36,168 nucleotides of DNA from Promethearchaeota archaeon (GTDB lineage: Archaea; Asgardarchaeota; Lokiarchaeia; Sigyniarchaeales; SOKP01), in NCBI GenBank assembly GCA_019058425.1, contig JAHPYZ010000049.1, forward strand, positions 1-36,168, written 5' to 3'. Position 1 is the stretch's first letter; every line of letters begins with the position of its first letter. Below the pieces are notes generated by a model, which made no database searches, was not told where the DNA came from, and was given only the letters and a program-made list of their open reading frames with translations. Positions 3,744-21,200 of this stretch are shown here, piece by piece. Both the position numbers and the translations under genes were made by a program.

Positions 3744-4283
3744 ATGAATGTCCTTGTTAAGAGAAATAAAATTGAAGTTATATGCCCAATTTGTAAAACA
3801 AGAGATATCGTTGGAATATCCCCCTCAAGATTAAATAAGAAATCTCAATTAACTACTATTTCTGTCCATAAAGGATTAATATGTCCACACCACTTTCAAT
3901 TTTTTATGGATAATAATTTTCAAATTCGAGGATATCAAAAAGTGGATTTGGAATTAAATCAAGCGAATGCTACTAAGTTAAGAAATGGTGTAAAAGCCTT
4001 TAATCTAACTGAGAATAAAGATAATGATCTTTTCGAACAGCTAATCATTGATGACGACAATATCAAATACAATACTATTAATCACAATGATATCAAGAAA
4101 ACAAGTATTTCAAAGCAAGAACCAATTTCAAAAAAGAAAAAGATGACCTCAAAAGAAATTTACGAAGAATTTTGGGAATTTATTGATGAAAATAATGAGA
4201 TTTTTCGCGAATTTATTATTAAAGATAATAGACGTCCAAAAACTTCATTAAATTCTCATATAAGTGAATGCATAACAATATAG
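3744..4283 (+). CDS. Small zinc-knuckle protein with charged C-terminus, unknown function
   Basis: 179 residues. The N-terminal 65 residues form a compact zinc site: Cys14 and Cys17 (CPIC) with Cys47 and His49/His50 (CPHHFQFF), followed by a RGYQKVDLEL strand. The rest is polar and low in complexity, with a lysine-rich segment and a helical end (KEIYEEFWEFIDENNE). I know of no function; similar short N-terminal domains occur in Asgard archaea, sometimes beside signalling domains, but that is from memory. A TATA-like AACTTAATATG about 25 bases before the ATG suggests a leaderless transcript. A broken relative of the C-terminal two thirds lies at 14055-14425, so this family has been duplicated and has decayed around the ABC locus. 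Confidence 0.65.
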   Translation: MNVLVKRNKIEVICPICKTRDIVGISPSRLNKKSQLTTISVHKGLICPHHFQFFMDNNFQIRGYQKVDLELNQANATKLRNGVKAFNLTENKDNDLFEQLIIDDDNIKYNTINHNDIKKTSISKQEPISKKKKMTSKEIYEEFWEFIDENNEIFREFIIKDNRRPKTSLNSHISECITI

Positions 4284-4573
4284 AATAGTTTTTATTAATT
4301 TTACTATGTATAATTGGCAAAATAAATTCCAAGAATCTATATATCAGATGATAAATTAATGAATCCATTTTTTACATCAGAATAAAGATACTAATTAAGA
4401 TGAGAACCTATTTTATAATGCATTTTCAATAGTGATATTGGTTAGTAGAATCAATAAATTCAAAAAAATTTTGTTCAATAACCTAATTAACAAAAAAATT
4501 CTTATTAGCCCATCGTCTATATACATTATTCGATTTTAAGAATAATTATGAAAATCCTTATACGCCTTATAAA

Positions 4574-5728
4574 ATGGATCTAGGTGGATTAATTAGAAAA
4601 GAATTTGGAAGAATTAAATCGGATAAAAGAACATTAGTTTTATTGTTTGTAATACCAGTAATTCTCATTCTGGTCTTCGGTTTAACCTCAAGTGTAGGAG
4701 TTACAAAATTTTTTACTTCTGCTATTATAACTCGTGATGATATGCCGACCTATGATGATTTTTCTGCTAACTCCTCTCGATATGATAGTAATTTTATATC
4801 AATAATGAAATATGAAACCGCATCATGGAGCCTTTATAAATATTATAATGCAACAGATCAAGAAGAATATGATAGAGCATATCAGGATTGCTATATCTAT
4901 CTTCAAAATGGTGATATAGATATTTTCATAGTATTACCTGAAAATTTTTCTGAATCAGTTGAAAATAAGACGAATCCAGTTCTAATTTATCATATTGATG
5001 GGTCTGATGCTGCCGCTATAACTGCAATAGAGGTTGCTCTTCAAGAACCTATTGCTTTATTTCGAGGTCAAACAGATATGATTGCCAATTTTACAATCAT
5101 GGTACCTCATCTTGAATTTGATGTTCCTTTTTGGGAATCTGCAATTCTGAATTATGCAATCCCATTGATTTTACCGATTATAATTCTTGGAACTACTATG
5201 AACTTAACCTCACTCTCAATTGTCTCTGAAGCTCCACTGCCTCGGATGCTTATTACACCTACAGCAAGAAGAGAGATAATTTTGAGTAAGTTAATAGCAA
5301 ATTCCATTGTTATGTTTCTTCAATCAACTGAGATTTTAATCACAATAGCACTATTTGGTTTATATAGTCTAGGTTCATTATTCTATTTCTATCTGGTTCT
5401 AATTATGATTGGATTTAGCGGTATATGTATTGGACTATTTATTTCTGCTTTAAGTCCAACAGAGCAAAGCGCGAATCAAATGTATCTTATTATGTTTATA
5501 ATTATAATTCTTTTTTCAGGAAGTATTCTTCCTTTAAACATAACAAATCCGAGTATACAAATTTTCTTGAATTTATTACCACTATCTAATGCTGTCCCAT
5601 TAATAACTGATATAACACTAAAAGGCTTGTCTCCAAATTTATCTAATCTATTTTGGCTTATCATAAGTTCCTTGATTTTTACTACTTTAGCTTATATCAC
5701 TTATATATTAAAGAAATTAGAGGTATGA
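4574..5728 (+). CDS. ABC-2 type transporter permease (first of pair)
   Basis: 384 residues with classic ABC-2 permease topology. A short amphipathic N-terminus (GLIRKEFGRIKSDKRT) precedes the first helix at about residues 20-40. A soluble loop of about 145 residues follows on the outer side, then five helices between about 190 and 383. The segment EAPLPRMLITPTARREIILSKL is the coupling region typical of this family, next to the helix that contacts the ATPase. This is a membrane half-transporter of an exporter; the cargo is unknown. It is the first gene of a tight plus-strand operon, and its stop lies one base before the ATG of the second permease. No AUG upstream in frame competes with this start, and a clear ribosome site is not visible. 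Confidence 0.85.
   Translation: MDLGGLIRKEFGRIKSDKRTLVLLFVIPVILILVFGLTSSVGVTKFFTSAIITRDDMPTYDDFSANSSRYDSNFISIMKYETASWSLYKYYNATDQEEYDRAYQDCYIYLQNGDIDIFIVLPENFSESVENKTNPVLIYHIDGSDAAAITAIEVALQEPIALFRGQTDMIANFTIMVPHLEFDVPFWESAILNYAIPLILPIIILGTTMNLTSLSIVSEAPLPRMLITPTARREIILSKLIANSIVMFLQSTEILITIALFGLYSLGSLFYFYLVLIMIGFSGICIGLFISALSPTEQSANQMYLIMFIIIILFSGSILPLNITNPSIQIFLNLLPLSNAVPLITDITLKGLSPNLSNLFWLIISSLIFTTLAYITYILKKLEV
5720..5724 (+). promoter_or_regulatory. Ribosome binding site of second permease
   Basis: GAGGT sits inside the last codons of the first permease, six bases before the ATG at 5730. It supports coupled translation of the two permeases. Confidence 0.6.
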
Positions 5729-5729
5729 T

Positions 5730-6995
5730 ATGAAGAAATCTTTTAACTTCAATCCAAGGAAATTCAAAAGAAAGGGGTTTAGAGTGAAATCTGAACCTAA
5801 AAATGATATTAAGAAAAAATCAAGTGTAAAAAATAAAATATATAGAATTATAATGCAAGTTAAGAAAGAATTTCGACTGTTATGGTCTGATAAATTCAAT
5901 ATATTACTTGCTATTGTAATGCCTCCTTTAATTATTACATTTTTAGGTTTAATAATGACCGATACATCTCAAGAAACTCAATCGATTCCCTGTGTTGTAG
6001 TGTCATATGATTCTAATACATTTATTAATCCAAATGACTTTTTTGAATCAAAATTAGATAATTTTACAATGCCGTATGTAAATGCTGTAAATAAATCAGC
6101 ATTATTAGAATTAGTTAAATTTTATAATGCTACTGAAGAAATTTATGCTATGGAGCAAGCGAGGACTGCCTTATTAGAAGGAACTATCAAAGTCATTATA
6201 TCATTACCAATTGATTTTACTGAGTTGATAGAATTGGGTTTACCTGGATTAGTAGATTGTATTCCTGATGCTTCAAATATGCAATTCATTCAAGCAAATA
6301 TTAATGCTGTATATGATTCAATTAAAATATTTATTAACGATACTAATTTAAAACCTCAATTTGTGGTCCAAGGGTTTGAAGATTTTACAATCCCTGAAGG
6401 TTATAGCGTTAGTTTCAATTCTAATATAGTTATGACTTTCTCATTTATGATTTTCGGAGTAGCATTTGTTTTATCCATATTAATAGTAGTTCAAGAAAAA
6501 CCAATAGCACGACTTCTACTTACTCCAGTAACACGATCAGAAATTATTATTTCTAAATATATCACATATACAATTGTATTACTAATTCAAAGCTCTTTAT
6601 TAATAGCTAGCGCGCTATCTATGGGCTTATTCATAGCAGGGTCCGTAGTAGATTTATTCTTAGCCCTGTTTATTATAGGTTTTTCTGGAATATCTTTTGG
6701 AGTTTTTATAAGCTCGCAAAGCAAAACAAAAACCCAGGCTAATCAATTATTTCTCGCATTTTATTTGGTGATAATTCTATTAAGTGGTATTTTCATTCCT
6801 ATTGAAAATATGCCATCTTACCTACAGTTTATTGCATATATTCTACCTTTATCTCACGGAGATCCTTTAATACGTGGCATTATTACAAAAGGTCAGTCAA
6901 TCTGGGGATTTCATTTTTTTTGGTTACTTGGCATAAGTTTGATTTTAATTGCGTTTTCCTTTCTTATCTTTAAAAGAAGAAAGTATGAGGTGTAG
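5730..6995 (+). CDS. ABC-2 type transporter permease (second of pair)
   Basis: 421 residues and homologous in layout to the preceding permease, so the pair would form a heterodimer. It has an extra, very basic N-terminal extension of about 45 residues (many Lys/Arg) before the first helix at about 57-77. An external domain of about 150 residues follows, then five helices between about 230 and 415, with the coupling segment KPIARLLLTPVTRSEIIISKY. The extension may contact nucleic acid, lipid head groups or the ATPases; this is inference. The ribosome site AGAGGT (5719-5724) overlaps the end of the upstream gene and lies 6 bases before the ATG, indicating translational coupling. Confidence 0.85.
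   Translation: MKKSFNFNPRKFKRKGFRVKSEPKNDIKKKSSVKNKIYRIIMQVKKEFRLLWSDKFNILLAIVMPPLIITFLGLIMTDTSQETQSIPCVVVSYDSNTFINPNDFFESKLDNFTMPYVNAVNKSALLELVKFYNATEEIYAMEQARTALLEGTIKVIISLPIDFTELIELGLPGLVDCIPDASNMQFIQANINAVYDSIKIFINDTNLKPQFVVQGFEDFTIPEGYSVSFNSNIVMTFSFMIFGVAFVLSILIVVQEKPIARLLLTPVTRSEIIISKYITYTIVLLIQSSLLIASALSMGLFIAGSVVDLFLALFIIGFSGISFGVFISSQSKTKTQANQLFLAFYLVIILLSGIFIPIENMPSYLQFIAYILPLSHGDPLIRGIITKGQSIWGFHFFWLLGISLILIAFSFLIFKRRKYEV
6987..6992 (+). promoter_or_regulatory. Ribosome binding site upstream of ABC ATPase gene
   Basis: GAGGTG overlaps the stop of the second permease. It lies 18 bases before the ATG at 7009 (counted from the last G of GAGG), which is long, but 9 bases before an in-frame ATA at 7000. 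See the finding on possible AUA initiation. Confidence 0.45.
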
Positions 6996-7008
6996 ATAAA
7001 TAAGCTCA

Positions 7009-8004
7009 ATGAAATCAAAGAAAAGAATGGTAGAAGTCAATAATTTAAATGTTAAATTTGGGGAGAAACATGTTGTGCATGATGTCCATTTCAATGTAAA
7101 TCAGGGAGAAATTATTGGATTATTTGGAATTTCAGGAGCAGGAAAAACAACAATAGTTAGAGTATTAACTTGCCAAATCGATAAGAAAAACTGGACAGGA
7201 AATGTAAAAGTAACTAATTTATCTCCAGCAAAAAAATCTAATCATTCAAGAATTTTAAGCAAAATTGGATATGTTCCTCAGTTAGAATTACTAAATTTAT
7301 ATTTTGATCTAAGTCCGATGGTCAATGTTGGAATTTTTACGTCAACCTATGGAATGAAAAAAAAAATGGCGAAAGAAGTGGCAAAGAAGCTATTTAAAAT
7401 TTTAGATATACCTAAGGATACATGGAATAAACCAGTAAAACATATGAGTGGAGGTGAGAAAAAGCGCTTGTCGATGGCTATCGGATTAATTCATAATCCC
7501 AATGTATTATTCCTTGATGAACCAACCACTGGTGTTGATGCAAGTAAACGATATGATATTTTAACCTATTTAAAGAAGTTAAATCAAAGACTTAATATTA
7601 CAATGTTCATAATAACTCATGATCTTGAAGCTGCGTTAATATGTGATAAAGCTGCGATTTTGAAAGATGGAAGATTACTCGAGTTTGATACACCTCAAAA
7701 TTTAATATCATCATTACCAAGTTATGGTTTAGTGGCAAGATTTACTATTGAGAATTTAAATGAAAAAATTATCGATAATATAAGAGAATTTAAACCTGTT
7801 CAAACGATATTAAGGAGTGGAAATGAAATAATTGAAATTTTGATGGATGGTTTTGACGAAAATATCTCAAATTTGATACAATATATGATTAATAATAAAA
7901 TAGAAATCATTTCTATGAGTAAAGACATTGCTTCTTTTCGAAGATTTTTTCAAATAAGAATTCAAAAGGAGGAAGAAAAAGAGGCTAACCTGAAACTAGT
8001 TTAG
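7009..8004 (+). CDS. ABC transporter ATP-binding protein (intact nucleotide-binding domain)
   Basis: 331-residue ATPase that powers the adjacent permeases on the cytoplasmic side. Walker A is GISGAGKTT (about residues 40-48), a Q-loop lies in GYVPQLELL, the signature is MSGGEKKR (about 146-153), Walker B is LFLDEPTTGVD (about 170) and the H-loop is ITHDLEAA. All catalytic elements are present. About 100 C-terminal residues after the ATPase core form a small alpha/beta domain like those of ABC-2 (DrrA/CcmA-type) exporters. The ATG at 7009 gives MKSKKRMVEVNNL, a normal beginning, but spacing from the upstream GAGGTG is long. This gene is the conventional partner for the two permeases; the next gene supplies a second intact ATPase domain, so the complex may have an asymmetric ATPase pair. 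Confidence 0.92.
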   Translation: MKSKKRMVEVNNLNVKFGEKHVVHDVHFNVNQGEIIGLFGISGAGKTTIVRVLTCQIDKKNWTGNVKVTNLSPAKKSNHSRILSKIGYVPQLELLNLYFDLSPMVNVGIFTSTYGMKKKMAKEVAKKLFKILDIPKDTWNKPVKHMSGGEKKRLSMAIGLIHNPNVLFLDEPTTGVDASKRYDILTYLKKLNQRLNITMFIITHDLEAALICDKAAILKDGRLLEFDTPQNLISSLPSYGLVARFTIENLNEKIIDNIREFKPVQTILRSGNEIIEILMDGFDENISNLIQYMINNKIEIISMSKDIASFRRFFQIRIQKEEEKEANLKLV

Positions 8005-8009
8005 GTGAT
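8004..8009 (+). promoter_or_regulatory. Ribosome-site-like element before the toroid-ATPase gene
   Basis: GGTGAT, complementary to the AUCACC part of the archaeal 16S 3' end, overlaps the stop of the ATPase gene. The nearest accepted start codon in frame is the TTG at 8058. In-frame ATA codons lie at 8010 and 8016, and there is no in-frame stop between. Confidence 0.35.
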
Positions 8010-8057
8010 ATAAAAATAAGTTTACAGATAAATTTAAGTCATCAAAGCAAACGACGG

Positions 8058-11000
8058 TTGAAGCACATAATTTTAATTATTATGCTTGTTAGTATACCTA
8101 GCATTGCTTTGGTTTTAGTGAATATACGATATATTGAATATATTAAGGGAGAAGAAATTAAAAAAATTAAAGAGGAAGCTGCTCTCTTCACATGGAGTCA
8201 TCAGAATGAACTAGGGCTTTTTATTGAACCTTCAATTGAGACCAATTTTAGAGCAATTGATTCGATAAATTTTTCATTAGCTAATAAAATTTCTTCAAAA
8301 TTAGTAAATCCGAACAATATTTCAAATGATATTATAAGAGATTTCAATCCTAACTTTTTCTTAGATTTTATTTTCGAAAAAAAAAACCCTGATGGTTCAT
8401 ATTCAGATATAGGTGGTTTTGGTAATATGGTTTCTTCATATGAAGCTATCAGAACATTAGAAATCCTTAATAAATCCTATTTGACAAATAAAATCGCACA
8501 AAATGAGACAAAAAATATCATTAATTTTTTGAATAATTCATTAAAAGATGATGGAAAGGGATTTAAAATAATTCCTTTCTTAAATGAAACTGATATAATT
8601 TCTACATCTTGTGCAATTTATTTAGCAAACACTCTAAACGGTGCAAATATCCTTAAAAATAATAACATTATAAATTATATTAATTCCACCTGGTTAGCAG
8701 GAAGTTATGGTTTAACCGACAATAATCTGAGTATAGTAACAGCAGAAACGACAAATTTTGGCATTAAAGCGTATCTAGGAATGAATTTGACTTATAATGG
8801 GGGAGATCTTTTTGCTATATGGTCATATTTTAACTCTCTCTATAATAACATAGATAATGGATTCGCGTCCGTTCCAACGGGTTTTTCAGATATTGAATCA
8901 ACTTATTATGCGTTATCATCATTACATATATTAGGACTACCTAAACCACTGTTATTTGATGCAAATAAGACTTTATCATATGTATTAAGTTGTGTAAAAC
9001 CAGATGGAGGTTTTAGCTTACATCCATGGCAAAATTCTAGTTCAAATTTTAAAGCAGGATGGGCTGCAATGAATACTCTTAATATTCTTAAAGAAGAAAA
9101 ATTGATATTTTTATCAGATTTTATTAATGTTACTGAGAGATATTACGGTTGGCTTCATTTTTTTCAAGCTAAAAATGCTTTATTTGGTCAAACTACAATC
9201 GAAGCAAACTTTTATGGAATTTCAGCTTTGTATACTTATAATCCTAAGATTTTCACTGATTTTATAAATAAAGAGATAATGTCTAAACAGATCTTAGAAA
9301 ATATTATATACTTTGTTGATCGATGTTATAATCAATATGAAGGAGGTTTTGGTTCCTCACCAGGAGAAAATGCAACTCTTTATTCGACATATTGTGGATT
9401 AAATATTTACAAAATGCTTTTCCCTTTTACTAATATATGGTTAAATACTTCTAATATTAATAAGATTCAAAATTATTTAGGGGAACTCCAAAATTCCGAT
9501 GGTGGTTTCAGTGTACATAGTGATGTGGAAACCATTTTATCTTTATTTGGACCATTTTATCAGGTATTCTTGTATTTTGTTAATTCAAATATCTCAACTA
9601 TTGAGAGTACATATTGGGCTTTAAATTCACTCGATATAGTTAATGGGTCTAGTATTATTAATAAAACCAATTTAACTCATTGGATGAGATCTTGCCAAAA
9701 TCCAGATGGGGGATTTTCAATGTTTATTGGATTTCATAGTGATGTTATTTCAACATATTACGGGCTTGAGATATTTATTAAGTTTCTAAATTCTGAACCA
9801 TTTTCTAAAATAGCAGCTGTTGATTTTCTAAAAATTGCCCAAACTTCAGATGGCTCATTTTCAGTATTACCGGCTTTCGGAGCTTATTTAGATCTCCCTT
9901 CAACATTTTTTATTACCTATTTTGGAGCAAAAGGTCTTTATGATTATAGATTTCAGCCAGAAAATATTCGATATACTTTTGAATGGTTTACCCAATGTAT
10001 TAGTGAGAAAACTGGAGGAATTGGCGATATTCCCCATTTTGGAGGCGATTTAAGAAATGTAGCATATGGTATATCTATTATAGATGAATTGAGATATGAT
10101 CAAAGATTTGATCCGAAACCTTGGTCAGATTTATTAATATATGTATTAATGATTGAGGTGGTGGGATTTAGTTTATATATCATTTTTAAGTTGTACCAAA
10201 AACTTTCAATCACAAAGAAGATAAGGGAAAGGTTGGGAATTGGAGGAAAATTTAAAAAGGAGTATTTAGAAAAGTTTTCTGCAATAAATTGTGAGAATCT
10301 CAGTGTATATGCCGGAAGAAAATTAATTGTTGATTCTGTCTCAATGAATATAAAACATGGTAAAATACTAGGAATTTTAGGAGAGAGTGGGGCAGGTAAA
10401 TCTACTTTTATTAAAGGTTTACTTGGTATGAGAAAAATTACAGGATTTTGTCAAATTTATGGAATGAATATAAATAAGCGTACTTCAAAAAGAATTCGTC
10501 CTATATATGGATATGTACCACAAGATTTAGGGAAGATTTACAATGATTTTACTACCTTGGAGAATTTATTATATTTTGGGACTCAATATGGGCTCACTGA
10601 AAAAGAAATCATAGGGAGATCTCGAAGAATTTTACGGAGCTTAGAAATAGATGATAAGGAGAATGAGTATGTCAAAAACCTTTCTGGAGGACAAAAAAGG
10701 CGAGTTAGTATTGCAATAGGATTAATACACTCACCAATGTTTTTAATATTAGATGAACCTACTAGTGGATTAGACCCCGTTGTTAGAGAGAACCTTTGGC
10801 TAGTATTAACTAAAATAAATGAACAATTTAAAACTACTTTAATTGTTATTACTCACTATCCTGAAGAATCGCGATTTTGCAATATGGTTGCAATTTTTGG
10901 CAGGAAACGAGGAATGTTAGATTTTGGAGAACCAATAAAACTCTTAGCTACTCTACCAGGTAAAGGTCGATCTATTGAGATTACATTTAAAAAAATTAGG

Positions 11001-11231
11001 AAGAATGTGATTTCTCGACTTGAATCGATTGAGGGTATTGATAAAGTTTTAGAAAATAAAGCTGGTACCGAATATTCAATTTTCACTGATTTAAATATAG
11101 ATAATTTAATCAATGAAATTGAAGAGGTGATAGGGAAGGATTCAATTCTAGATATAAAACAAATTGATTCAAAAATGGAGCAATATTTCCGGTATAAAGC
11201 AATGGAGGTACCTAAAGTTGAAGAAGTCTAA
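8058..11231 (+). CDS. Fusion of extracytoplasmic prenyltransferase-like toroid with ABC ATPase
   Basis: 1057 residues in three parts. An N-terminal signal anchor (IILIIMLVSIPSIALVLV) is followed by about 650 residues of helical repeats with recurring DGGFS-type turns at about residues 111, 165, 264, 315, 427, 480, 549, 596 and 651. This is the alpha/alpha-toroid pattern of protein prenyltransferase beta subunits and squalene cyclases. A second membrane helix at about 690-713 leads to an intact ABC ATPase: Walker A GESGAGKST (about 775-783), signature LSGGQKRR (about 875), Walker B FLILDEPTSGLD and H-loop VITHYPEES. About 18 N-x-S/T sequons crowd the toroid region, consistent with an outside location. 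The acidic DxDD of squalene cyclases is not visible, so a binding role is more likely than catalysis. The start is TTG; frame is open back to 7989. Confidence 0.88.
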   Translation: MKHIILIIMLVSIPSIALVLVNIRYIEYIKGEEIKKIKEEAALFTWSHQNELGLFIEPSIETNFRAIDSINFSLANKISSKLVNPNNISNDIIRDFNPNFFLDFIFEKKNPDGSYSDIGGFGNMVSSYEAIRTLEILNKSYLTNKIAQNETKNIINFLNNSLKDDGKGFKIIPFLNETDIISTSCAIYLANTLNGANILKNNNIINYINSTWLAGSYGLTDNNLSIVTAETTNFGIKAYLGMNLTYNGGDLFAIWSYFNSLYNNIDNGFASVPTGFSDIESTYYALSSLHILGLPKPLLFDANKTLSYVLSCVKPDGGFSLHPWQNSSSNFKAGWAAMNTLNILKEEKLIFLSDFINVTERYYGWLHFFQAKNALFGQTTIEANFYGISALYTYNPKIFTDFINKEIMSKQILENIIYFVDRCYNQYEGGFGSSPGENATLYSTYCGLNIYKMLFPFTNIWLNTSNINKIQNYLGELQNSDGGFSVHSDVETILSLFGPFYQVFLYFVNSNISTIESTYWALNSLDIVNGSSIINKTNLTHWMRSCQNPDGGFSMFIGFHSDVISTYYGLEIFIKFLNSEPFSKIAAVDFLKIAQTSDGSFSVLPAFGAYLDLPSTFFITYFGAKGLYDYRFQPENIRYTFEWFTQCISEKTGGIGDIPHFGGDLRNVAYGISIIDELRYDQRFDPKPWSDLLIYVLMIEVVGFSLYIIFKLYQKLSITKKIRERLGIGGKFKKEYLEKFSAINCENLSVYAGRKLIVDSVSMNIKHGKILGILGESGAGKSTFIKGLLGMRKITGFCQIYGMNINKRTSKRIRPIYGYVPQDLGKIYNDFTTLENLLYFGTQYGLTEKEIIGRSRRILRSLEIDDKENEYVKNLSGGQKRRVSIAIGLIHSPMFLILDEPTSGLDPVVRENLWLVLTKINEQFKTTLIVITHYPEESRFCNMVAIFGRKRGMLDFGEPIKLLATLPGKGRSIEITFKKIRKNVISRLESIEGIDKVLENKAGTEYSIFTDLNIDNLINEIEEVIGKDSILDIKQIDSKMEQYFRYKAMEVPKVEEV
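11204..11208 (+). promoter_or_regulatory. Ribosome binding site deciding the start of the pseudo-ATPase gene
   Basis: GGAGG inside the end of the toroid-ATPase gene lies 9 bases before the TTG at 11218. It favours that start over the TTG at 11164, which would overlap the upstream gene by 68 bases. Confidence 0.65.
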
Positions 11232-13083
11232 AAAATTTAAACAACCTCTACTAAAACGTCTTAAAATAAGAAAATCAGGAGTATTGAAACCAGAACATAT
11301 CTCTAATAAATTTAAGAACTTTAAAATGAAGCGTACTAAAGAAGTACAGATACCACAGGTAGAGAAAACTAGTAAACTTAAAAAATCTCGAGATGTTGAA
11401 TTAGAACGCCTTAGATTAAAAATTTTAGATGCTGTTAGATTTTCTAAACGTTTTTGGATGACATATAGAGAAAATACTTTTGGGATTGCATCAATCTTAA
11501 ATTTAGTCTATAAAAGATCCTTTTTTGAGGTATTATTCTTCACAAATAGGGATGTTATAGAAAAAGGTGTTCCATTATTAAAAATATATACTCCATCTGA
11601 AGATGAAATAGATTTTGGTGAAATTATTATCGATCCAGATTTTGATGATGATGGTCTTGTGAGCCCTAGTAAAATAATTGCTCGTATGAGGAAACTTATA
11701 AGAAGTGAATTTCAAAAACATTTGAAAAGACTAGATAAAGAAATTGAATTGATTGACTTGAAATTCGAAAATTATCCAATTGATGATAATCCTTACTTCA
11801 GGGAAGTTCGAATTTCTTTCCTTTTTTTTACAATTGAGTTGAAAATTAACTTCGAAAAATATCCTCTTTTACCATCATATTCTTTTTCAAAAACACTTTT
11901 AAAGATTATAAGTGAGCGAGAATTTAATGAAGAAGATATTATTAGAAATTGGAAAGAGCAAAATCCGCCCCATATACACCAATTGAGTGAGAGAATTCAT
12001 GAAATCGTTATAAATAAATTAAAAATTGATAAATTTAGAGTAAACTCGCAGCATTTAATCCTTAGCAACGTATCAATAGAGAATAATATATCAAATGTCT
12101 CATTTAGTATTCATAGAGGAAAATCGATAGGAATATTATATGATGATAGTTTATTATTTGATGATCAGCATAGATTTGATTTATTTTATTTATTATGGGC
12201 TATTTCTGGCAATTATACTGAATATTCTGGGAAAATAGAGATTTTTGGGAGAAATATTCTATTATTAAGTAAATATGAGTTGGAGAAGATATTTATTTTA
12301 CCCGCAGCATATGACTCAAAAATAAATAATATGAAAATTAAGAAAGCAATAAAGTATAATACTAATCTGAAAGAAATTCTTAAAGATAGGAAAACTAAAT
12401 TAGATAAAGTATTAAAAAGTGCTGGTTTTGCTCCAAAAATTGATGAGATAATGGGAGATCTATTTCTAGCTGCCCCCATGAGAGTTAGTCGTACAAAATC
12501 ATATATAAAAAAAGCTTTAGAAGTGACTGGTTTATTAAATAAAAAAAATAAAGTGTACTCAAAATTAACTCAATTAGAAATTGTTTTATTTTCCATTGCT
12601 AAAACATTAATACAATTTCCTTCGATAATTATGTTTCTAATTCCCGATGAAATATTAAACAGATTAGAATATGATAAGTTTAATAGCTATATAGAAAAAA
12701 TTAAAAAAGAATTTCATGTCATTTTAATCTTTTGTGGTCCAGAAGGCGTAATTTCTGGTTGTGATCAAATATTAACCTTTAAAAAGCAAGAATCTAAAAC
12801 AGAGAGCTATGAAAACCTAATTAAAGAATTACCTCGATCTGGTGAAATAATAACAGTTGATTTACACAATCCTGATGATGTTATGATTAAAAATTTATAT
12901 GATTTTGATGAAATTGCGAAAATCCAGGAAGAAAGAAAAAATGAAAGATATAAAATCTTTTTAAAAGATGACCCTAGAAAAATTATACTTAAATTGACTG
13001 AACTATTTGGCCCTAGTCTTTTTAATTTTAAAAGATCTAAGGCTAGTTTAGGTGATTATGTAGAATTTTTTGAAAAAAACTAA
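11218..13083 (+). CDS. Degenerate ABC ATPase-like protein with N-terminal RWD/UBC-like domain
   Basis: About 621 residues from the TTG at 11218, chosen for its GGAGG site; it overlaps the upstream gene by 14 bases. After a Lys/Arg-rich start (about 1-70) comes a soluble domain (about 80-280). Its order of elements recalls a UBC/RWD fold: LKRLDKEIELI, an IELKINFEKYPLLPSY strand-and-YP segment, then NWKEQNPPHIHQLSERI. It lacks a cysteine that could be catalytic. From about 290 the protein follows the ABC ATPase pattern, but Walker A has become GILYDDSLLFDD with no GKS/T, the signature has become SKLTQLEIVLF, and the H-loop histidine is lost (IFCGPEGV). Only an IPDE remnant of Walker B stays. 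It is probably a non-hydrolysing partner of the two intact ATPases. The RWD/UBC reading is tentative. Confidence 0.72.
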   Translation: MKKSKKFKQPLLKRLKIRKSGVLKPEHISNKFKNFKMKRTKEVQIPQVEKTSKLKKSRDVELERLRLKILDAVRFSKRFWMTYRENTFGIASILNLVYKRSFFEVLFFTNRDVIEKGVPLLKIYTPSEDEIDFGEIIIDPDFDDDGLVSPSKIIARMRKLIRSEFQKHLKRLDKEIELIDLKFENYPIDDNPYFREVRISFLFFTIELKINFEKYPLLPSYSFSKTLLKIISEREFNEEDIIRNWKEQNPPHIHQLSERIHEIVINKLKIDKFRVNSQHLILSNVSIENNISNVSFSIHRGKSIGILYDDSLLFDDQHRFDLFYLLWAISGNYTEYSGKIEIFGRNILLLSKYELEKIFILPAAYDSKINNMKIKKAIKYNTNLKEILKDRKTKLDKVLKSAGFAPKIDEIMGDLFLAAPMRVSRTKSYIKKALEVTGLLNKKNKVYSKLTQLEIVLFSIAKTLIQFPSIIMFLIPDEILNRLEYDKFNSYIEKIKKEFHVILIFCGPEGVISGCDQILTFKKQESKTESYENLIKELPRSGEIITVDLHNPDDVMIKNLYDFDEIAKIQEERKNERYKIFLKDDPRKIILKLTELFGPSLFNFKRSKASLGDYVEFFEKN

Positions 13084-13087
13084 AAAT

Positions 13088-13101
13088 TTTATTTAAAAGT
13101 A
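13088..13101 (+). promoter_or_regulatory. Putative TATA element for longin-like membrane protein
   Basis: TTTATTTAAAAG lies about 22-30 bases before the ATG at 13120, which is the spacing expected for a leaderless archaeal transcript. It suggests this gene can be transcribed separately from the ABC genes just upstream. Confidence 0.35.
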
Positions 13102-13119
13102 TTCAAAAAGTGTATAATA

Positions 13120-13923
13120 ATGATAAAAAGCATATATATCTTGGACGAGAATGGGATTTTATTATATTCTAAAAATTTTATGAAAAGGAAATATGATGAG
13201 AATATTCTAATCGGTTTTTTTTCTTCAGTTTCTAATTTTAGTAGGGAAGCATTAGGAAGTGTTGTAAAAAATGTCGATCTTGGGGATAATAATAAATTAA
13301 TTTTGGTAACTCATTCAGAAGAAAGATTAATCGGAGCTACCATTGTAAATGCTAGCGATAACAATGATCTTGTCACCATAATTCTTAGTAACATTATGCA
13401 GGATTTTATTGATACATTTTCACCAGATTATAACCCAGAGAAAATTTTCCCAAATGAAATGGAGAAAATAATTGATCAAAACTTAAGAGGAAAAATTATG
13501 CACTCTCCATTTATAAGGATCTCGCTTTCATGGTTGATTGTAGGACCATTATCATACTTTTTGATTTTTTTGAGTATAAATGCTACATTATTCATTTATA
13601 ACTTCTTCAATCTAAATAGATTTTACACACCCGATCAATTATTCACGAGGTTTATGCCCAGTTTAATTGCGTTATCTACTTCTAATATTGTAATTTTATT
13701 CTTACTACCAAATTTAATATTGGGATTTTTAGCTCCAAATTGGAAGGTAGCTTTATTGAATTCATTCATATACTTCGTTGTAACTATAGGAGTATATTTT
13801 TTTTCAGCAGAACCAAATTTTGCGTATATTATAATAGGGGATTTACCATTAAGCTTAATTTTCTCTTTATTTTTTCTTTTTATTGGTATCAGATATTCTT
13901 CAAGAAGGTTCCTAAGAATTTAG
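13120..13923 (+). CDS. Longin-like domain fused to a membrane-helix bundle
   Basis: 267 residues. The first 105 or so read as a longin/profilin-like fold. The first strand is IKSIYILDENGILLYSKNF, then a helix (ENILIGFFSSVSNFSREAL), three strands (VVKNVDLGDNNKLILVTH, ERLIGATIVN) and a terminal helix (IILSNIMQDFIDTF). Proteins of this pattern are common in Asgard archaea and resemble eukaryotic longin/Mon1-Ccz1/AP-sigma folds that bind small GTPases or SNAREs. The rest holds four to five membrane helices (about 135-160, 185-207, 210-235, 238-258). The gene follows the pseudo-ATPase by 36 bases on the same strand, so a role with the ABC complex is likely but not proven. Confidence 0.68.
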   Translation: MIKSIYILDENGILLYSKNFMKRKYDENILIGFFSSVSNFSREALGSVVKNVDLGDNNKLILVTHSEERLIGATIVNASDNNDLVTIILSNIMQDFIDTFSPDYNPEKIFPNEMEKIIDQNLRGKIMHSPFIRISLSWLIVGPLSYFLIFLSINATLFIYNFFNLNRFYTPDQLFTRFMPSLIALSTSNIVILFLLPNLILGFLAPNWKVALLNSFIYFVVTIGVYFFSAEPNFAYIIIGDLPLSLIFSLFFLFIGIRYSSRRFLRI

Positions 13924-14054
13924 CATATAAATAGAGGATATAATTACTATTTTTTCATACTTATAAAAGAGAATTCTTTTACTTCAGAAATATTTTCTCT
14001 TAATTCTATTATATAATATTTCATCAATTATCAGATATACCTAATTCTTATTAA

Positions 14055-14425
14055 GTAAAAATCTTAGATTGGATACAAAAGATATAGGAAAGTGTAAAAT
14101 TCAATAATGCAAATTCAGCTGAGTTAGGAAATAAGGTAAAAGCTTTTAGTCTAAATGAGACTAAAAATAAGGATCTTTTTAAACGGCTAATCATAAACGG
14201 AGAAGAGGTTAAATACAAATCCACTAATCAGATGGAAATAAAGGAAAAGAGTAATTCAAAACAATTAAATATTTCAGAAAAGAAAAGGATGACCCCAAAA
14301 GAAATTTATGAAGAATTTCGGGAATTGTCTATGATAATATTAGCATTTTTCATGAATTTATAATTGACAATATTAGGCTTAAAAATCATTTATTATATTC
14401 TAATAATAACTTAGAATATGACTAA
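14055..14425 (+). pseudogene. Decayed relative of the zinc-knuckle gene at 3744-4283
   Basis: One frame translates to AELGNKVKAFSLNETKNKDL, then KRLIINGEEVKYKS and EKKRMTPKEIYEEFRE. This aligns along its length with the intact gene (TKLRNGVKAFNLTENKDNDL, EQLIIDDDNIKYN, KKKMTSKEIYEEFWE). The copy has a stop at 14085 within the part matching GYQKVDLEL and lacks the upstream zinc site. Near 14328 the frame shifts: the continuation SIFHEFIIDNIRLKN, matching EIFREFIIKDNRRPK, is read from 14330 in another frame and ends at 14425. The segment between EEF and IIxDN is 4 bases shorter than in the intact gene. It is therefore a real pseudogene, old enough to have diverged to about half identity. Confidence 0.78.
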
Positions 14426-14831
14426 ATAGAACTAAATCAGGAAATTTAAAATTATAATTTTATTAATTTGTATTTTATTTGTTTTTTATTGTTAGTATTC
14501 TAATCATAACAGGTATATTTATTTAACTATAATAGATCCAAGATGATAATTATATTGTTAGTGATTTTAATGGTTTTGGTAATTTATCACTAAATTCAAT
14601 TGATTACAGAAAATTAAAAAATAATCTTAAAAAAAAATTTAGTTCCATATCATTTTTCAGAAAATTGTTTGAAATTTTAAAATTAAAAGATTAGTAAGAA
14701 GAAAGAATAAAATTATTATCTTATTTCTATTAAATATTAAAGAGAGAATAGATCTTAGAACCATAGCTATTTATAAATAAAAAAGAAAGTTATATTTATA
14801 GTATTAAAAAAGAAATTACTATTAAATTGTC
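14426..14831. other. Non-coding AT-rich stretch with a possible ORF fragment
   Basis: About 400 bases without a recognisable gene. An open frame from 14536 to 14694 could encode about 52 residues (DDNYIVSDFNGFGNLSLN, then lysine-rich), but it has no start codon at its beginning and I do not recognise it. It may be more gene debris like the pseudogene just upstream. The last 40 bases hold a TATATTTATAG element (about 14790-14801) that could be the promoter of the next gene. Confidence 0.4.
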
Positions 14832-15560
14832 ATGGCTTTAGAATTTATTGATCTTATAGTGGCCATTTTTTCTTTCATTTATGTATTGGTAAATATTACT
14901 ATAAGCATCAAAATAATTTGGACATACTACAAGTTTAAAAGTATAAACATATTATTAATGGGAATTGCATGGATTGGGTTAGCTTGTCCTTGGATCCCAG
15001 ATGTACTGAACCCTCTATATGAAATAATCGATCCGGGTCATCATAATAATGGAATAATTATCCTTAATTATACTGTAAATGTTGTAATAATTTCAATTCC
15101 TATTATCTGTTGGATCATTGCATTACTGAATTTACTTAGTGCAAGAAAAAGTTTCAAATATACAATTTTAATATCAGTTATTTCAATTGTTTTGGTATTT
15201 GAAACAATTCTTCTTTTATTATTTTCAACAGATTTAATTTCAGGTGCAATTCATGTGTACAATTATACCTCTGATATCCTCGATGTTTTTTTATTAGTAG
15301 TACTTGTTATTATACTCGTATCTGGGATGATTTTTGTTGGAGTTTCAATAAAATCTTCTGATAAAGTAGTGAAAATAAAGGGAATATTTCTAATGATGGC
15401 TTTTATATTATTTCCTATTGGAGCTCTTATAGATATGGTAATTTCAGGAATTACATCAAATATTATAGCTAGATTAATATTATGTATAAGTTCAATAATG
15501 TTTTATTTTGGTTTAATTATGCCAACTTGGATTAAAAAGAAATTAATAAAAGAAGAATAA
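14832..15560 (+). CDS. Seven-helix membrane protein of unknown function
   Basis: 242 residues, almost all membrane. Seven hydrophobic helices can be counted at about residues 5-28, 37-55, 75-98, 108-132, 143-168, 180-200 and 208-230. The only notable polar feature is CPWIPDVLNPLYEIIDPGHH between helices two and three. The topology resembles many seven-helix proteins of Asgard archaea, but there is no retinal lysine or enzyme motif that I can identify. It is flanked by gene debris upstream and a T-rich stretch downstream, so it is probably transcribed alone. Confidence 0.65.
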   Translation: MALEFIDLIVAIFSFIYVLVNITISIKIIWTYYKFKSINILLMGIAWIGLACPWIPDVLNPLYEIIDPGHHNNGIIILNYTVNVVIISIPIICWIIALLNLLSARKSFKYTILISVISIVLVFETILLLLFSTDLISGAIHVYNYTSDILDVFLLVVLVIILVSGMIFVGVSIKSSDKVVKIKGIFLMMAFILFPIGALIDMVISGITSNIIARLILCISSIMFYFGLIMPTWIKKKLIKEE

Positions 15561-15616
15561 TTTGCTTGAAATCTTCAATAAAAAAAAATAAAAAGAATAA
15601 GTAAAATTTAAACAAC

Positions 15617-15635
15617 TTTTTTTTATATTTTAATC
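15617..15635 (+). terminator. Putative oligo-T terminator after the seven-helix protein
   Basis: An eight-T run followed by a further T-rich stretch lies about 57 bases after the stop codon. This fits an archaeal intrinsic terminator, though such runs are frequent in this AT-rich DNA. Confidence 0.35.
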
Positions 15636-15801
15636 TGGATCAATTGATTTTTATAAAAGATACAATACTCCTAAAAGAAAAAATCTTAGTTTTCATGTAA
15701 TAGATATAAGAAAATTTAAAATTTGGTTCTTAATTTTCCAAAATAATATTTTTAACTAAATAAAATTAAAAATTTGAACATTAATTAATAGGTTGGAAAT
15801 T

Positions 15802-18906: not shown

Positions 18907-20400
18907 ATGAATTTAAAGAAAAATCTAAAGAAATACATTCCTTTAATTGCATTCATTGTAGGAATAGGATTGGATCTTTCTTTATGGGTATTATATCTTC
19001 CTATCATGAGAAGAGAGCCAATTCCCGGAGACAGAAAAGCAATAATCCTTTGTAGTGCAAATGATTTTTATAGAAAGGATGGTGAGCCTGATTTTGAGGA
19101 AGGAAAATTTGATAATGAAACTACTAACTGGGAAGGAAATTTTAATCCTAATGGGTATGGCATTGTAGATAGTACAATTCATGGTCATGATACTCCTGGA
19201 GTTGTACAAATGATAGCAAAAGCAAACTTCACAAACGGGTATGTTGATATGGAGTATGTATACAATTGGACAATTTTTTATCCATTATTAAAATATGCTG
19301 CATACAATCTTTCTGCGTGGGTAAATATCACTCAAAATAATTGGGATCCCGCTACTATTATACCTACGGGAGTCGGAGCACGAATAGGCTTACGATGGTT
19401 AAATTCCAGCAATGATGTTGTACGAACTGATTGGTCAAAGGGTATATATGATACCTTCACCGGGTGGACTTTTCTAAATGCAACTGGTATCGCTGATGAC
19501 CCTAGTTTAAACGAAATAACCCAATTACATTTGGTATTAGCAGTGGAGGGGAATATGACTGGTACTGATATGGTGCTTTTTGATGATGTTAAGGTAGAAC
19601 ACTGGTTTCCACCTCCAATTCCAAGCCCTGTTCCAAGTAATATAGATTCAGATGGCTTTCCTGCTCAAGCACTCCAAGTTTATTGGACTTTAAAGAACCA
19701 TGGATATACAGATGATAATATCTTTTTAATGCTTTATCATACAAATGATAACACAATAGATATCAATGCGAATGATGGAATATTAAATGATTTGACTGGT
19801 GCTATTATCGATGTAGAGAATAATAATGTTAACTCAAGTAGGCTCAAGCAAGAATTGAATATCTCAATTCCAGGCTCATTTGCCTCTAGTATAAATTCAA
19901 AAGATAGCTTAATAATTTATATGGTAGACCATGGTTCCAATACAGTACTAGGTGATGGTAATGCGACTTTCCATTTCGAATCGGATAATAGTTATCTCTC
20001 AGAATTTGAATTTGTTAATCTCATCAAGGAGATAAATTGCAAACGGATGCTAATTAATATCGATATTTGTTATAGTGGCAACTTTTTAAATCAAAATTCA
20101 AGCATAGGATTAAGTTGGTATGATATTCCCAATTCCTTATTAGTCACATCAACAACAGATATTTTTTCTTGGTATTGGCGAGATAATCTGAATGCTGATG
20201 GTTTTGCCGGATCATGGTTTTTTCATCAATTTTGGGATCAATTAAATAAAAACCAAACAATAGGAGCTGCTTTCAATTTTTCAAAAGATTTCATACCTCA
20301 GGGGCAAACAAATACTATTTATGATATTCAAACGCCTTTAATTCGAGATAATTTAGGGATTAAAAATATCTGGAGTTTTAATAATACTCCTCAATTATAG
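18907..20400 (+). CDS. Membrane-anchored C13 (legumain/caspase-fold) peptidase with internal beta-rich insertion
   Basis: 497 residues. A basic start and hydrophobic helix (about 11-33) form a signal anchor. The clan CD peptidase fold begins with DRKAIILCSANDFY (about 42-55). It is interrupted by about 180 residues (62-245) of beta-rich, sequon-rich sequence resembling a carbohydrate-binding jelly roll, and resumes with FPAQALQVYWTLKNHGYTDD. The catalytic pair is His342 (MVDHGSN) and Cys388 (NIDICYSGNF), each after a hydrophobic strand as in legumain and GPI transamidase Gpi8. The protease half then runs to the end with no C-terminal anchor. It probably cleaves or ligates proteins outside the membrane. 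The small Ig-like protein downstream may be a partner or substrate; that is inference from position only. Confidence 0.83.
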   Translation: MNLKKNLKKYIPLIAFIVGIGLDLSLWVLYLPIMRREPIPGDRKAIILCSANDFYRKDGEPDFEEGKFDNETTNWEGNFNPNGYGIVDSTIHGHDTPGVVQMIAKANFTNGYVDMEYVYNWTIFYPLLKYAAYNLSAWVNITQNNWDPATIIPTGVGARIGLRWLNSSNDVVRTDWSKGIYDTFTGWTFLNATGIADDPSLNEITQLHLVLAVEGNMTGTDMVLFDDVKVEHWFPPPIPSPVPSNIDSDGFPAQALQVYWTLKNHGYTDDNIFLMLYHTNDNTIDINANDGILNDLTGAIIDVENNNVNSSRLKQELNISIPGSFASSINSKDSLIIYMVDHGSNTVLGDGNATFHFESDNSYLSEFEFVNLIKEINCKRMLINIDICYSGNFLNQNSSIGLSWYDIPNSLLVTSTTDIFSWYWRDNLNADGFAGSWFFHQFWDQLNKNQTIGAAFNFSKDFIPQGQTNTIYDIQTPLIRDNLGIKNIWSFNNTPQL

Positions 20401-20520
20401 TTTTACGTTTTTTCATAAATTCTTAATTTTCAAATTAATGATATTAAGATTGTTTTTATTGGAATTTCAAAACAGATATTAGATTGTTCCCTTAAGTTTA
20501 AATTCAGTAGAAATTATTAA

Positions 20521-20533
20521 AATTTAATATAAG
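20521..20533 (+). promoter_or_regulatory. Putative TATA element for the Ig-like surface protein
   Basis: TTTAATATAAG lies about 20-27 bases before the ATG at 20550, consistent with a leaderless transcript. Confidence 0.3.
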
Positions 20534-20549
20534 AACTATAAAGATCAGT

Positions 20550-21200
20550 ATGAAAATAGTCTATAGGGGATTTAAGAAAACTTTAGTTTCTAGCATAGTT
20601 ATTCTTATAAGTTTATTTTTAATCTTTCCATGTGTTCATTATAACTATAATTTAAATATTCTGGCAGAAATTGAAAACGATCTAGGGAATAATGAAGTTT
20701 TGTCATATGCCCAGGGTCCTATTAATGATACTACCGCGCCTATTATTATTTTTATTCAACCCACTGAGAATAATACAATAATAAAGCAAAAAAGTTATAA
20801 TATAATTGTAAATATTACTGATGATAATCCTCCTTCATATGGAAATGTGACTATTCAAATTTCAAATCAAACCAGCTTTCTATATAACGATACAATGAAT
20901 TATGATGGAGGAAGACAGTGGAGCTATAATTGGGATAATATTAGTTTATATCCAAATTATAATTTCTATAATATCAAAATCTGGGCAAAAGATTCTTCAC
21001 CAAATGAAAACCACATTTGGTCTGATGAATTTCAAATCGTCATAAGAATATCAACTGGTCCGTCATTCCTACACTTTTTGCTCTATATTGTGGTAGTTTC
21101 AGTCATTTTTTCTCTAATAATTGTATATATGAACAAAAAGGCGATATTCAGGACATCAAAAAAACAGAAGAAAAATTCCCAAGAGATTTATGAATATTGA
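20550..21200 (+). CDS. Surface protein with Ig-like domain and C-terminal membrane anchor
   Basis: 216 residues. A signal sequence or anchor is visible at about 10-29 (LVSSIVILISLFLIFPCVHY). The core (about 68-165) begins DTTAPIIIFIQPTENNT and has alternating strands, with a typical Ig/fibronectin-like ending YNIKIWAKDSSPNENHIWS. At least seven N-x-S/T sequons point to exposure outside the cell. A membrane helix (about 172-192) and a basic cytoplasmic tail (NKKAIFRTSKKQKKNSQ) finish the protein. Its function is unknown. It lies 150 bases after the C13 peptidase gene on the same strand and may be an adhesion or accessory surface protein. Confidence 0.72.
   Translation: MKIVYRGFKKTLVSSIVILISLFLIFPCVHYNYNLNILAEIENDLGNNEVLSYAQGPINDTTAPIIIFIQPTENNTIIKQKSYNIIVNITDDNPPSYGNVTIQISNQTSFLYNDTMNYDGGRQWSYNWDNISLYPNYNFYNIKIWAKDSSPNENHIWSDEFQIVIRISTGPSFLHFLLYIVVVSVIFSLIIVYMNKKAIFRTSKKQKKNSQEIYEY

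What the first reader, a model, noticed from the sequence alone, without database searches (positions are those of the whole stretch)
4574..13923. Six-gene ABC-2 exporter locus with an external toroid, three ATPase-type proteins and a longin-like protein
Seen: two ABC-2 permeases, an intact ATPase, a toroid-anchor-ATPase fusion, a third ATPase-like protein with its catalytic motifs lost, and a longin-like membrane protein. All are on one strand, the first five overlapping or nearly so. Known: ABC-2 exporters normally need only permeases and one or two ATPases. Inference: the toroid outside the cell is physically coupled to ATP hydrolysis inside through one transmembrane segment, and the pseudo-ATPase and longin protein regulate or place the complex. 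This could be a lipid, glycolipid or protein exporter specific to Asgard archaea.
Basis: partly seen in the sequence, partly recalled or inferred. Interest (0 to 1): 0.85.

Follow-up and report, generated by a model that had tools for sequence, protein, structure and literature searches.

The report
Lokiarchaeal exporter with outside toroid
Six neighbouring genes in Lokiarchaea encode what looks like a membrane exporter whose engine is fused to a ring-shaped protein outside the cell and which carries extra inner parts resembling eukaryotic trafficking proteins; the set tends to come and go as one unit, but its cargo is unknown.

Summary
At 4574-13923 one strand carries two ABC-2 permeases (P1, P2), a complete ABC ATPase (A1), a fusion of an outside toroid, a membrane segment and a complete ATPase (TA), a dead third ATPase (PS), and a longin-fold membrane protein (LG). 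New here: the PS N-terminus is RWD (E2-like), probably in tandem.

The fusion was found in 47 of 227 genomes of the phylum (E up to 1e-100), all in the window's class. Among 83 class genomes, PS and strong LG matches did not occur without it. Where contigs are long enough to tell, P2 is beside TA in 38 of 40 genomes, PS in 46 of 46, LG in 41 of 42. In five of six same-genus genomes without TA that I examined, the flanking genes close up without the block.

A sister ABC-2 system in the phylum has an ATPase of A1's lineage, another resembling TA's, and a giant subtilase.

Most likely: an ABC-2 export or lipid-extraction machine with an A1/TA motor pair, a toroid that accepts hydrophobic cargo, and PS/LG as regulators. 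Architecture and gene unity are shown; assembly, cargo and regulation are inferred. New variant of a known kind.

The parts
4574..5728 (+). P1: ABC-2 permease, one TM, about 150 aa outside domain, five TMs
   Evidence: Pfam ABC2_membrane_3 7.9e-28; hydropathy; closest PDB sequence 'ABC transporter G family member 23-like', 6.6e-9
5730..6995 (+). P2: second ABC-2 permease
   Evidence: Pfam ABC2_membrane_3 9e-28; same PDB molecule 1.9e-12
7009..8004 (+). A1: catalytically complete ABC ATPase, DrrA-like
   Evidence: ABC_tran 9.8e-24; TIGR01188 drrA 3.7e-54, below its cut-off; motifs invariant in 19 of 19 aligned rows
8058..11231 (+). TA: N-terminal TM (res 3-21), outside toroid (22-690), TM2 (692-710), complete ABC ATPase (738-1057)
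   Evidence: one reading frame in relatives
8121..10127 (+). toroid part of TA: repeats like protein prenyltransferase beta subunits
   Evidence: Prenyltrans 3.4e-40; closest PDB sequence Rab GGTase beta 1.3e-10; no DxDD in the window; no His column at 18 or more of 20
11326..13083 (+). PS: RWD-type N-terminus plus pseudo-ABC ATPase (open frame from 11164)
11380..12045 (+). N-terminal RWD (E2-like) module of PS; second unit well supported, first unit less so
   Evidence: PS-N profile hits multi-RWD proteins of the relatives at 1.9e-16 to 2.1e-29 in 17 frames; BLASTP of a relative's PS-N with one of them 7e-13 (second unit) and 4e-8 (first unit)
12043..13080 (+). pseudo ABC ATPase domain of PS with C-terminal extension
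13120..13923 (+). LG: longin domain (res 1-127) plus helical membrane part
4284..15792 (.). extent of the block absent in 5 of 6 examined same-genus genomes that lack TA (includes the ORF at 14832-15560)

Best explanation
The six genes encode one ABC-2 export or lipid-extraction machine of Lokiarchaeia. P1 and P2 form the membrane pair. A1 and the ATPase end of TA form the ATP-hydrolysing pair. The toroid of TA sits outside the cell, held by two membrane segments, and accepts or holds a hydrophobic (probably isoprenoid-lipid or lipid-linked) cargo at the exit. PS is a cytosolic subunit without a working ATP site that docks through its dead ATPase domain and offers RWD modules to partners. LG is a membrane-bound longin platform that links the machine to the cell's small-GTPase/longin network. 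Shown: domain make-up, kept and lost catalytic motifs, gene-set unity, restriction to one class within the phylum. Inferred: A1/TA pairing, physical assembly, cargo, roles of PS and LG.
For: Gene unity; cassette behaviour. Two complete ATPases from two lineages: in the tree A1 groups with the sister system's small ATPase (100/99) while TA's ATPase is a separate clade (99/98), and 16 of 19 sister loci examined hold both a small and a long ATPase. Fusion topology. Dead but conserved PS, one clade (100/99). RWD. Longin. Hydrophobic cargo (weak): toroid repeats closest to protein prenyltransferase beta subunits, which bind isoprenoids (recalled); the permeases' closest PDB sequences are entries named ABC transporter G family member 23-like, which I take from recall to be the insect ABCH transporter said to move ceramide (PMC12578276 passages).
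Against: No complex prediction or co-purification. The toroid cavity was not modelled, and a toroid fold alone does not fix a ligand. The PDB match of the permeases is weak and covers only the C-terminal half. The block is dispensable: only 8 of 19 genomes of the genus have TA. G019 has no P1 match at 1e-20, and in G147 P1 lies on another contig. LG is not beside TA in G052. Full-length but weaker LG-like matches occur in genomes without TA (G054, G043, G045). PS joins in the tree involve long branches, which the tool flags as unsure.
Confidence: 0.55

Rival explanations
1. A mechanotransmission machine rather than a pump: ATP cycles of P1/P2/A1/TA move the outside toroid, which acts on lipids or surface proteins, as in MacB- or YbbAP-TesA-type systems.
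For: ATPase and outside domain are one chain; the sister system sits beside a giant subtilase (11 of 11 giants scanned), 10 of which also show ABC_transp_aux, GIFT or DUF4350 stretches, mostly weak; precedent YbbAP-TesA (PMC12646458 abstract).
Against: P1/P2 are ABC-2 permeases by Pfam, not FtsX/MacB type; no enzyme motif was found in the toroid.
Confidence: 0.25
2. A conventional drug- or peptide-efflux ABC-2 pump (DrrAB-like) whose accessory domains tune it.
For: NCBIfam matches drrA and drrB, both below cut-off; drug and peptide exporters are a usual label for Asgard ABC-2 systems (PMC7997004 passages).
Against: Usual drug pumps lack an outside toroid, a pseudo-ATPase and a longin protein (recalled); the fusion is found in six families of the class.
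Confidence: 0.12
3. Two machines sharing a locus: P1-P2-A1 (A1 homodimer) and a separate TA-PS pair.
For: Three ATPase-like domains for two permeases; PS is nearer to TA's ATPase than to A1 (hhalign 7.4e-25 against 7.8e-16).
Against: PS, TA and the permeases stay together in nearly all assessable genomes; sister loci hold two ATPases without a recognised PS (PS at 1e-30 found only with TA).
Confidence: 0.08

Closest known systems
DrrAB-like ABC-2 exporters and the ABCA/ABCG/ABCH group
   Same: permease family (Pfam ABC2_membrane_3), DrrA-like ATPases; closest PDB sequence of P1/P2 is an ABC transporter G family member 23-like protein
   Different: ATPase fused to an outside toroid; extra pseudo-ATPase; longin membrane protein
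Sister subtilase-linked ABC-2 system of the same phylum
   Same: ATPase of A1's lineage plus a long ATPase resembling TA's, ABC-2 permease-like genes, a large outside protein
   Different: outside protein is a separate subtilase; no PS or LG equivalent recognised beside it by tblastn
YbbAP-TesA and other type VII mechanotransmission ABCs (PMC12646458, abstract)
   Same: ABC coupled to an extracytoplasmic partner that handles hydrophobic molecules
   Different: different permease family; TesA is a separate enzyme
NosDFY (PDB 7o0y is among the fold hits; the system itself is recalled)
   Same: ABC-2 pair with a dedicated outside protein
   Different: NosD is a separate protein of another fold (recalled); no pseudo-ATPase
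Rab geranylgeranyltransferase / protein farnesyltransferase beta subunits
   Same: toroid repeats (1.3e-10)
   Different: no conserved His for a zinc site; predicted outside the cell; fused to an ABC ATPase
Longin proteins (AP sigma, Sec22b, VAMP7, TRAPP subunits)
   Same: fold of LG residues 1-127
   Different: LG adds membrane helices and is encoded with an ABC exporter
Multi-RWD proteins of the same lineage (loci L209-L228)
   Same: RWD units
   Different: PS carries a pseudo-ABC domain; L209 has a weak RING-like end instead

Membership tests
ABC-2 exporter | two ABC-2 permease domains | tested here: met
ABC-2 exporter | two complete ATPase domains | tested here: met
   A1 and TA
ABC-2 exporter | ATP-driven transport of a substrate | not testable with these tools
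   needs biochemistry
DrrA/DrrB drug exporters | NCBIfam scores above the family cut-off | tested here: not met
   A1 against drrA 184.1 of 312.45 bits; P2 against drrB 47.4 of 223.05
Protein prenyltransferase beta / squalene cyclase enzymes | toroid repeats | tested here: met
Protein prenyltransferase beta / squalene cyclase enzymes | catalytic site: Asp/Cys/His zinc site or DxDD (both recalled) | tested here: not met
   no DxDD in the window toroid; best His column 15 of 20 rows, near the N-terminus
ABC ATPase (for PS) | fold | tested here: met
ABC ATPase (for PS) | Walker A, signature, Walker B | tested here: not met
   0 of 24 rows have Walker A or signature; none has both Walker B acids
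RWD domain (for PS N-terminus) | homology to recognised RWD/E2-like proteins | tested here: met
   indirect: PS-N profile hits 17 RWD-bearing frames at 1.9e-16 or better; the L209 protein matches Pfam UQ_con 1.1e-10 and RWD 2.2e-8. Direct Pfam scan of PS-N members showed no RWD, and the ordinary E2 loci L229-L248 gave no hit
RWD domain (for PS N-terminus) | fold match to solved RWD/E2 structures | tested here: inconclusive
   fold list filled by the ABC domain
Longin | longin fold | tested here: met
Longin | binding to small GTPases, coats or SNAREs | not testable with these tools
   needs biochemistry

The most novel reading that the evidence does not exclude
A Lokiarchaeal exporter of isoprenoid lipids or lipid-linked cargo in which the ATPase directly drives a surface toroid, and which is run by the same kinds of modules (longin, RWD/E2-like) that serve membrane traffic and ubiquitin signalling in eukaryotes: a transporter wired into a proto-trafficking network. 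With its subtilase-linked sister it defines a class of Asgard ABC-2 machines that work through outside domains.
Probability: 0.25. Interest if true: 0.82.

Novelty: new variant of a known kind. Interest (0 to 1): 0.62.

Why it matters
It is a conserved, separable gene set that attaches eukaryote-like modules (longin, RWD, prenyltransferase-type toroid) to a transport ATPase in Lokiarchaea. If the assembly is real, it gives a concrete, testable case of what such modules did before eukaryotes, and an unusual way of coupling ATP hydrolysis to a domain outside the cell.

Tried and rejected
The direct Pfam scan of PS-N and its profile search against PDB sequences gave no convincing hit (best Rpb8 at 0.008). 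RWD/E2 folds are not listed, where the ABC domain fills the list. The idea that the PS N-terminus is the same as that of the sister system's long ATPase was not supported: hhalign aligned only the ATPase parts. The idea that the second toroid protein (21310-25719) is a copy of TA's toroid was not supported (BLASTP best 0.007). The idea that the 179-aa protein at 3744-4283 is a seventh member was dropped: it is within 9 kb of TA in 23 of 47 genomes but stays when the block is missing. Distance correlations between the six genes (0.63-0.94) have no control gene and are not used as evidence of contact. The subtilase-type protein of the own genome (G000:C92) has no P1, P2, A1 or TA match at 1e-5 in the first 12 kb of its 24.7 kb contig. 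In my notebook I called the small A1 insert a perfect hairpin of 31-35 nt; the computed stems are 4-10 bp and the lengths 31-34 nt.

Rows left out, mostly near-copies and fragments. Of the loci listed, alignments took 23 of 27 for PS (the L047 row there was really TA; L049, L060, L062 left out), 20 of 23 for LG, 19 of 28 for TA and 18 of 29 for A1, plus the window. The RWD alignments took 18 of the 24 PS rows, the pseudo-ATPase alignment 20 of 24. The tree got 6 outgroups although 14 were sought. A1 genes with the small insert are absent from the A1 alignment and tree.
Full report
WHAT IS THERE. The window is contig C55 of an unnamed 4.64 Mb genome. Its family f1 holds a genome (G142) that carries, at identical contig coordinates and 100% identity, the protein of a record titled Candidatus Lokiarchaeota archaeon AMARA_5S, so the window is Lokiarchaeal at family level. 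The six ORFs are on the + strand: P1 4574-5728, P2 5730-6995, A1 7009-8004, TA 8058-11231, PS to 13083, LG 13120-13923. Pfam assigns P1 and P2 to ABC-2 permeases, A1 to ABC_tran, and TA to a Prenyltrans toroid plus ABC_tran; PS and LG have no family at 0.01.

TA. Hydropathy gives two membrane segments, 3-21 and 692-710, with the toroid between them and the ATPase after the second. Basic residues before the first segment in the longer relatives and after the second fit an inside N-terminus, an outside toroid and an inside ATPase. The fusion is one reading frame in relatives down to 36% identity. The toroid repeats are closest among PDB sequences to Rab geranylgeranyltransferase beta (1.3e-10), but the window toroid has no DxDD motif, and no toroid column keeps His in 18 or more of 20 rows (maximum 15, near the N-terminus), so a prenyltransferase zinc site (ligands recalled) is not conserved. 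Asp550, Asp657, Asp664, Cys423, Cys647, Trp365 and Trp689 are the same in all 20.

PS N-TERMINUS. A profile of PS residues 19-240, searched in 2302 frames of the fetched loci, finds frames in 19 of the 20 loci that an RWD family search had brought in (L209-L228): 17 at 1.9e-16 to 2.1e-29 and two weakly (6.4e-5, 3.3e-4); L216 gave none, and none of the ordinary E2 loci (L229-L248) did. The hits fall almost wholly on the second half of the profile. BLASTP of one relative's PS N-terminus with the L209 protein gives 7e-13 for the second unit and 4e-8 for the first (E for this single comparison). L209 itself matches Pfam UQ_con (1.1e-10) and RWD (2.2e-8), with a RING-like end below cut-off. The model's secondary structure is helix-strands-helix twice. 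So the second unit is RWD by sequence; the first is likely. The fold match is untested, because the ABC domain filled the structure list.

ONE UNIT. In 227 genomes of the phylum the toroid-ATPase fusion is in 47 at E up to 1e-100, all in the window's class (class n = 83), and in 8 of the 19 genomes of the genus. PS (E up to 1e-30) is in 45 of 83 class genomes, none without TA; PS and LG were not searched in the rest of the phylum. Within 9 kb of TA in the 47 genomes: P1 37, P2 38, A1 44, PS 44, LG 40. By my reading of the contig ends the misses are cut contigs, except: P1 and P2 in G019 (no P1 match at 1e-20) and G147 (P1 on another contig); LG in G052; G155, where PS and LG follow on the next contig; and G051, where a PS N-terminus starts right after TA and is cut by the contig (1.7e-32 in a small set). 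Assessable counts are then P1 37/39, P2 38/40, A1 44/44, PS 46/46, LG 41/42. Gene order is the same in nearly all; in G052 (L045) PS lies divergently in front and P1-P2 follow TA. In L069 and L072 1.6-2.1 kb separate TA and PS. Median gaps are 1, 4, 30, -8 and 23 nt (22-25 loci each, a few miscalled starts included).

CASSETTE. Flanking genes recur: the CoA-ligase type in 13 loci, the 179-aa gene in 22, the GlcD-like in 18 and the Fe-S gene in 13 of the 43 loci compared, many of which are too short to hold them. Of 11 same-genus genomes without TA, 8 have the GlcD-like gene at 1e-150 and I fetched 6: five have CoA-ligase, 179-aa gene, GlcD-like and Fe-S genes side by side with no match to any of the six genes; the sixth (L253) also lacks them but has other sequence between. 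In six other loci of the genus the block lies on the other side of the 179-aa gene.

SISTER SYSTEM. Genomes of the class and phylum also encode one or two ABC-2 permease-like genes (tblastn hits), an A1-like ATPase and a 550-650 aa ATPase whose ATPase end gives the best non-TA matches to TA. Of 19 such loci examined (18 fetched plus L078, a Jordarchaeum record), 16 hold both ATPases. In the tree A1 and the sister's small ATPase form one clade (100/99); TA is one clade (99/98), while the sister's long ATPases are not one clade and their exact relation to TA is open. All 11 giant neighbouring proteins that I scanned, in 11 of the 18 fetched loci, match Peptidase_S8; ten have ABC_transp_aux, GIFT or DUF4350 stretches, some over cut-off and one (L036) only at 0.002-0.008; two have an MBTPS1-like stretch, one over cut-off. 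The other seven loci were not scanned for giants; several are short contigs.

MECHANISM. Shown: make-up, intact and lost motifs, unity, lineage. From established ABC knowledge (recalled): two permeases plus two complete ATPases make a full exporter, and a domain tied to one ATPase across the membrane should feel its movement. Inferred: A1 pairs with TA; the toroid caps the exit; the cargo is hydrophobic (prenyltransferase toroids bind isoprenoids, recalled; the nearest PDB sequence of the permeases is named ABC transporter G family member 23-like, which I take from recall to be the insect ABCH transporter described as moving ceramide in passages of PMC12578276; that text does not name the PDB entry I looked for); PS docks and regulates; LG links to GTPase regulation (longin domains in Asgard, PMC10933270 passages). 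A mechanotransmission reading, as in YbbAP-TesA (PMC12646458 abstract), is the main rival.

LITERATURE. Asgard + longin + ABC transporter + archaea gave one paper, whose passages do not describe such a system. ABC transporter + squalene + toroid + archaea + fusion (12 of 40 listed), Asgard + RWD (2 papers), Asgard + longin + roadblock (5 papers) and Asgard + site-1 protease (none) showed nothing on it in the listings. Preprints and most subscription papers are not held, so this is not proof of absence.

VERDICT. The RWD module, the cassette behaviour and the sister system are additions.

Noticed in passing
A1 gene in L063, L065, L074, L191, L194, L200 (site equivalent to window 7531): In 6 of 41 loci with this part of A1 covered, the A1 gene is cut at the same codon junction (DEPTT|GVDA) by a 31-34 nt insert that shifts the frame and runs into a stop; exact stems of 4-10 bp inside, fold z-scores -0.85 to -2.55. 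Looks like a tiny intron, but a broken gene or recoding is not excluded. Searches (1 paper; 10 of 189 listed) showed no report.
   Followed up: partly
L031, L033-L037, L050, L052, L054, L055, L057: ABC-2 systems beside giant membrane-anchored subtilases with GIFT/ABC_transp_aux-like stretches and, in two, an MBTPS1-like stretch; may bear on the origin of site-1 protease.
   Followed up: partly
L209-L228: Proteins with several RWD/E2-like units; L209 also has a weak RING-like end.
   Followed up: partly
window 18907-21200 and 21310-25719: A C13-type peptidase (3.4e-9), a protein with two hydrophobic segments and a 1469-aa protein with an N-terminal toroid stretch and two C-terminal hydrophobic segments lie downstream; the peptidase is near the block only in this genus in the loci compared.
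   Followed up: no
L200 10560-12830; also gaps in L191, L194, L067: Insertions between P2 and A1 in some relatives; in L200 a 756-aa Cys/His-rich ORF without a convincing Pfam family; part of A1 is repeated beside the gap in L191 and L194, L067 gap.
   Followed up: no
L041 and L198 (inside the second RWD unit of PS): About 250 nt insertion within the PS frame in two genomes of genus g5.
   Followed up: no
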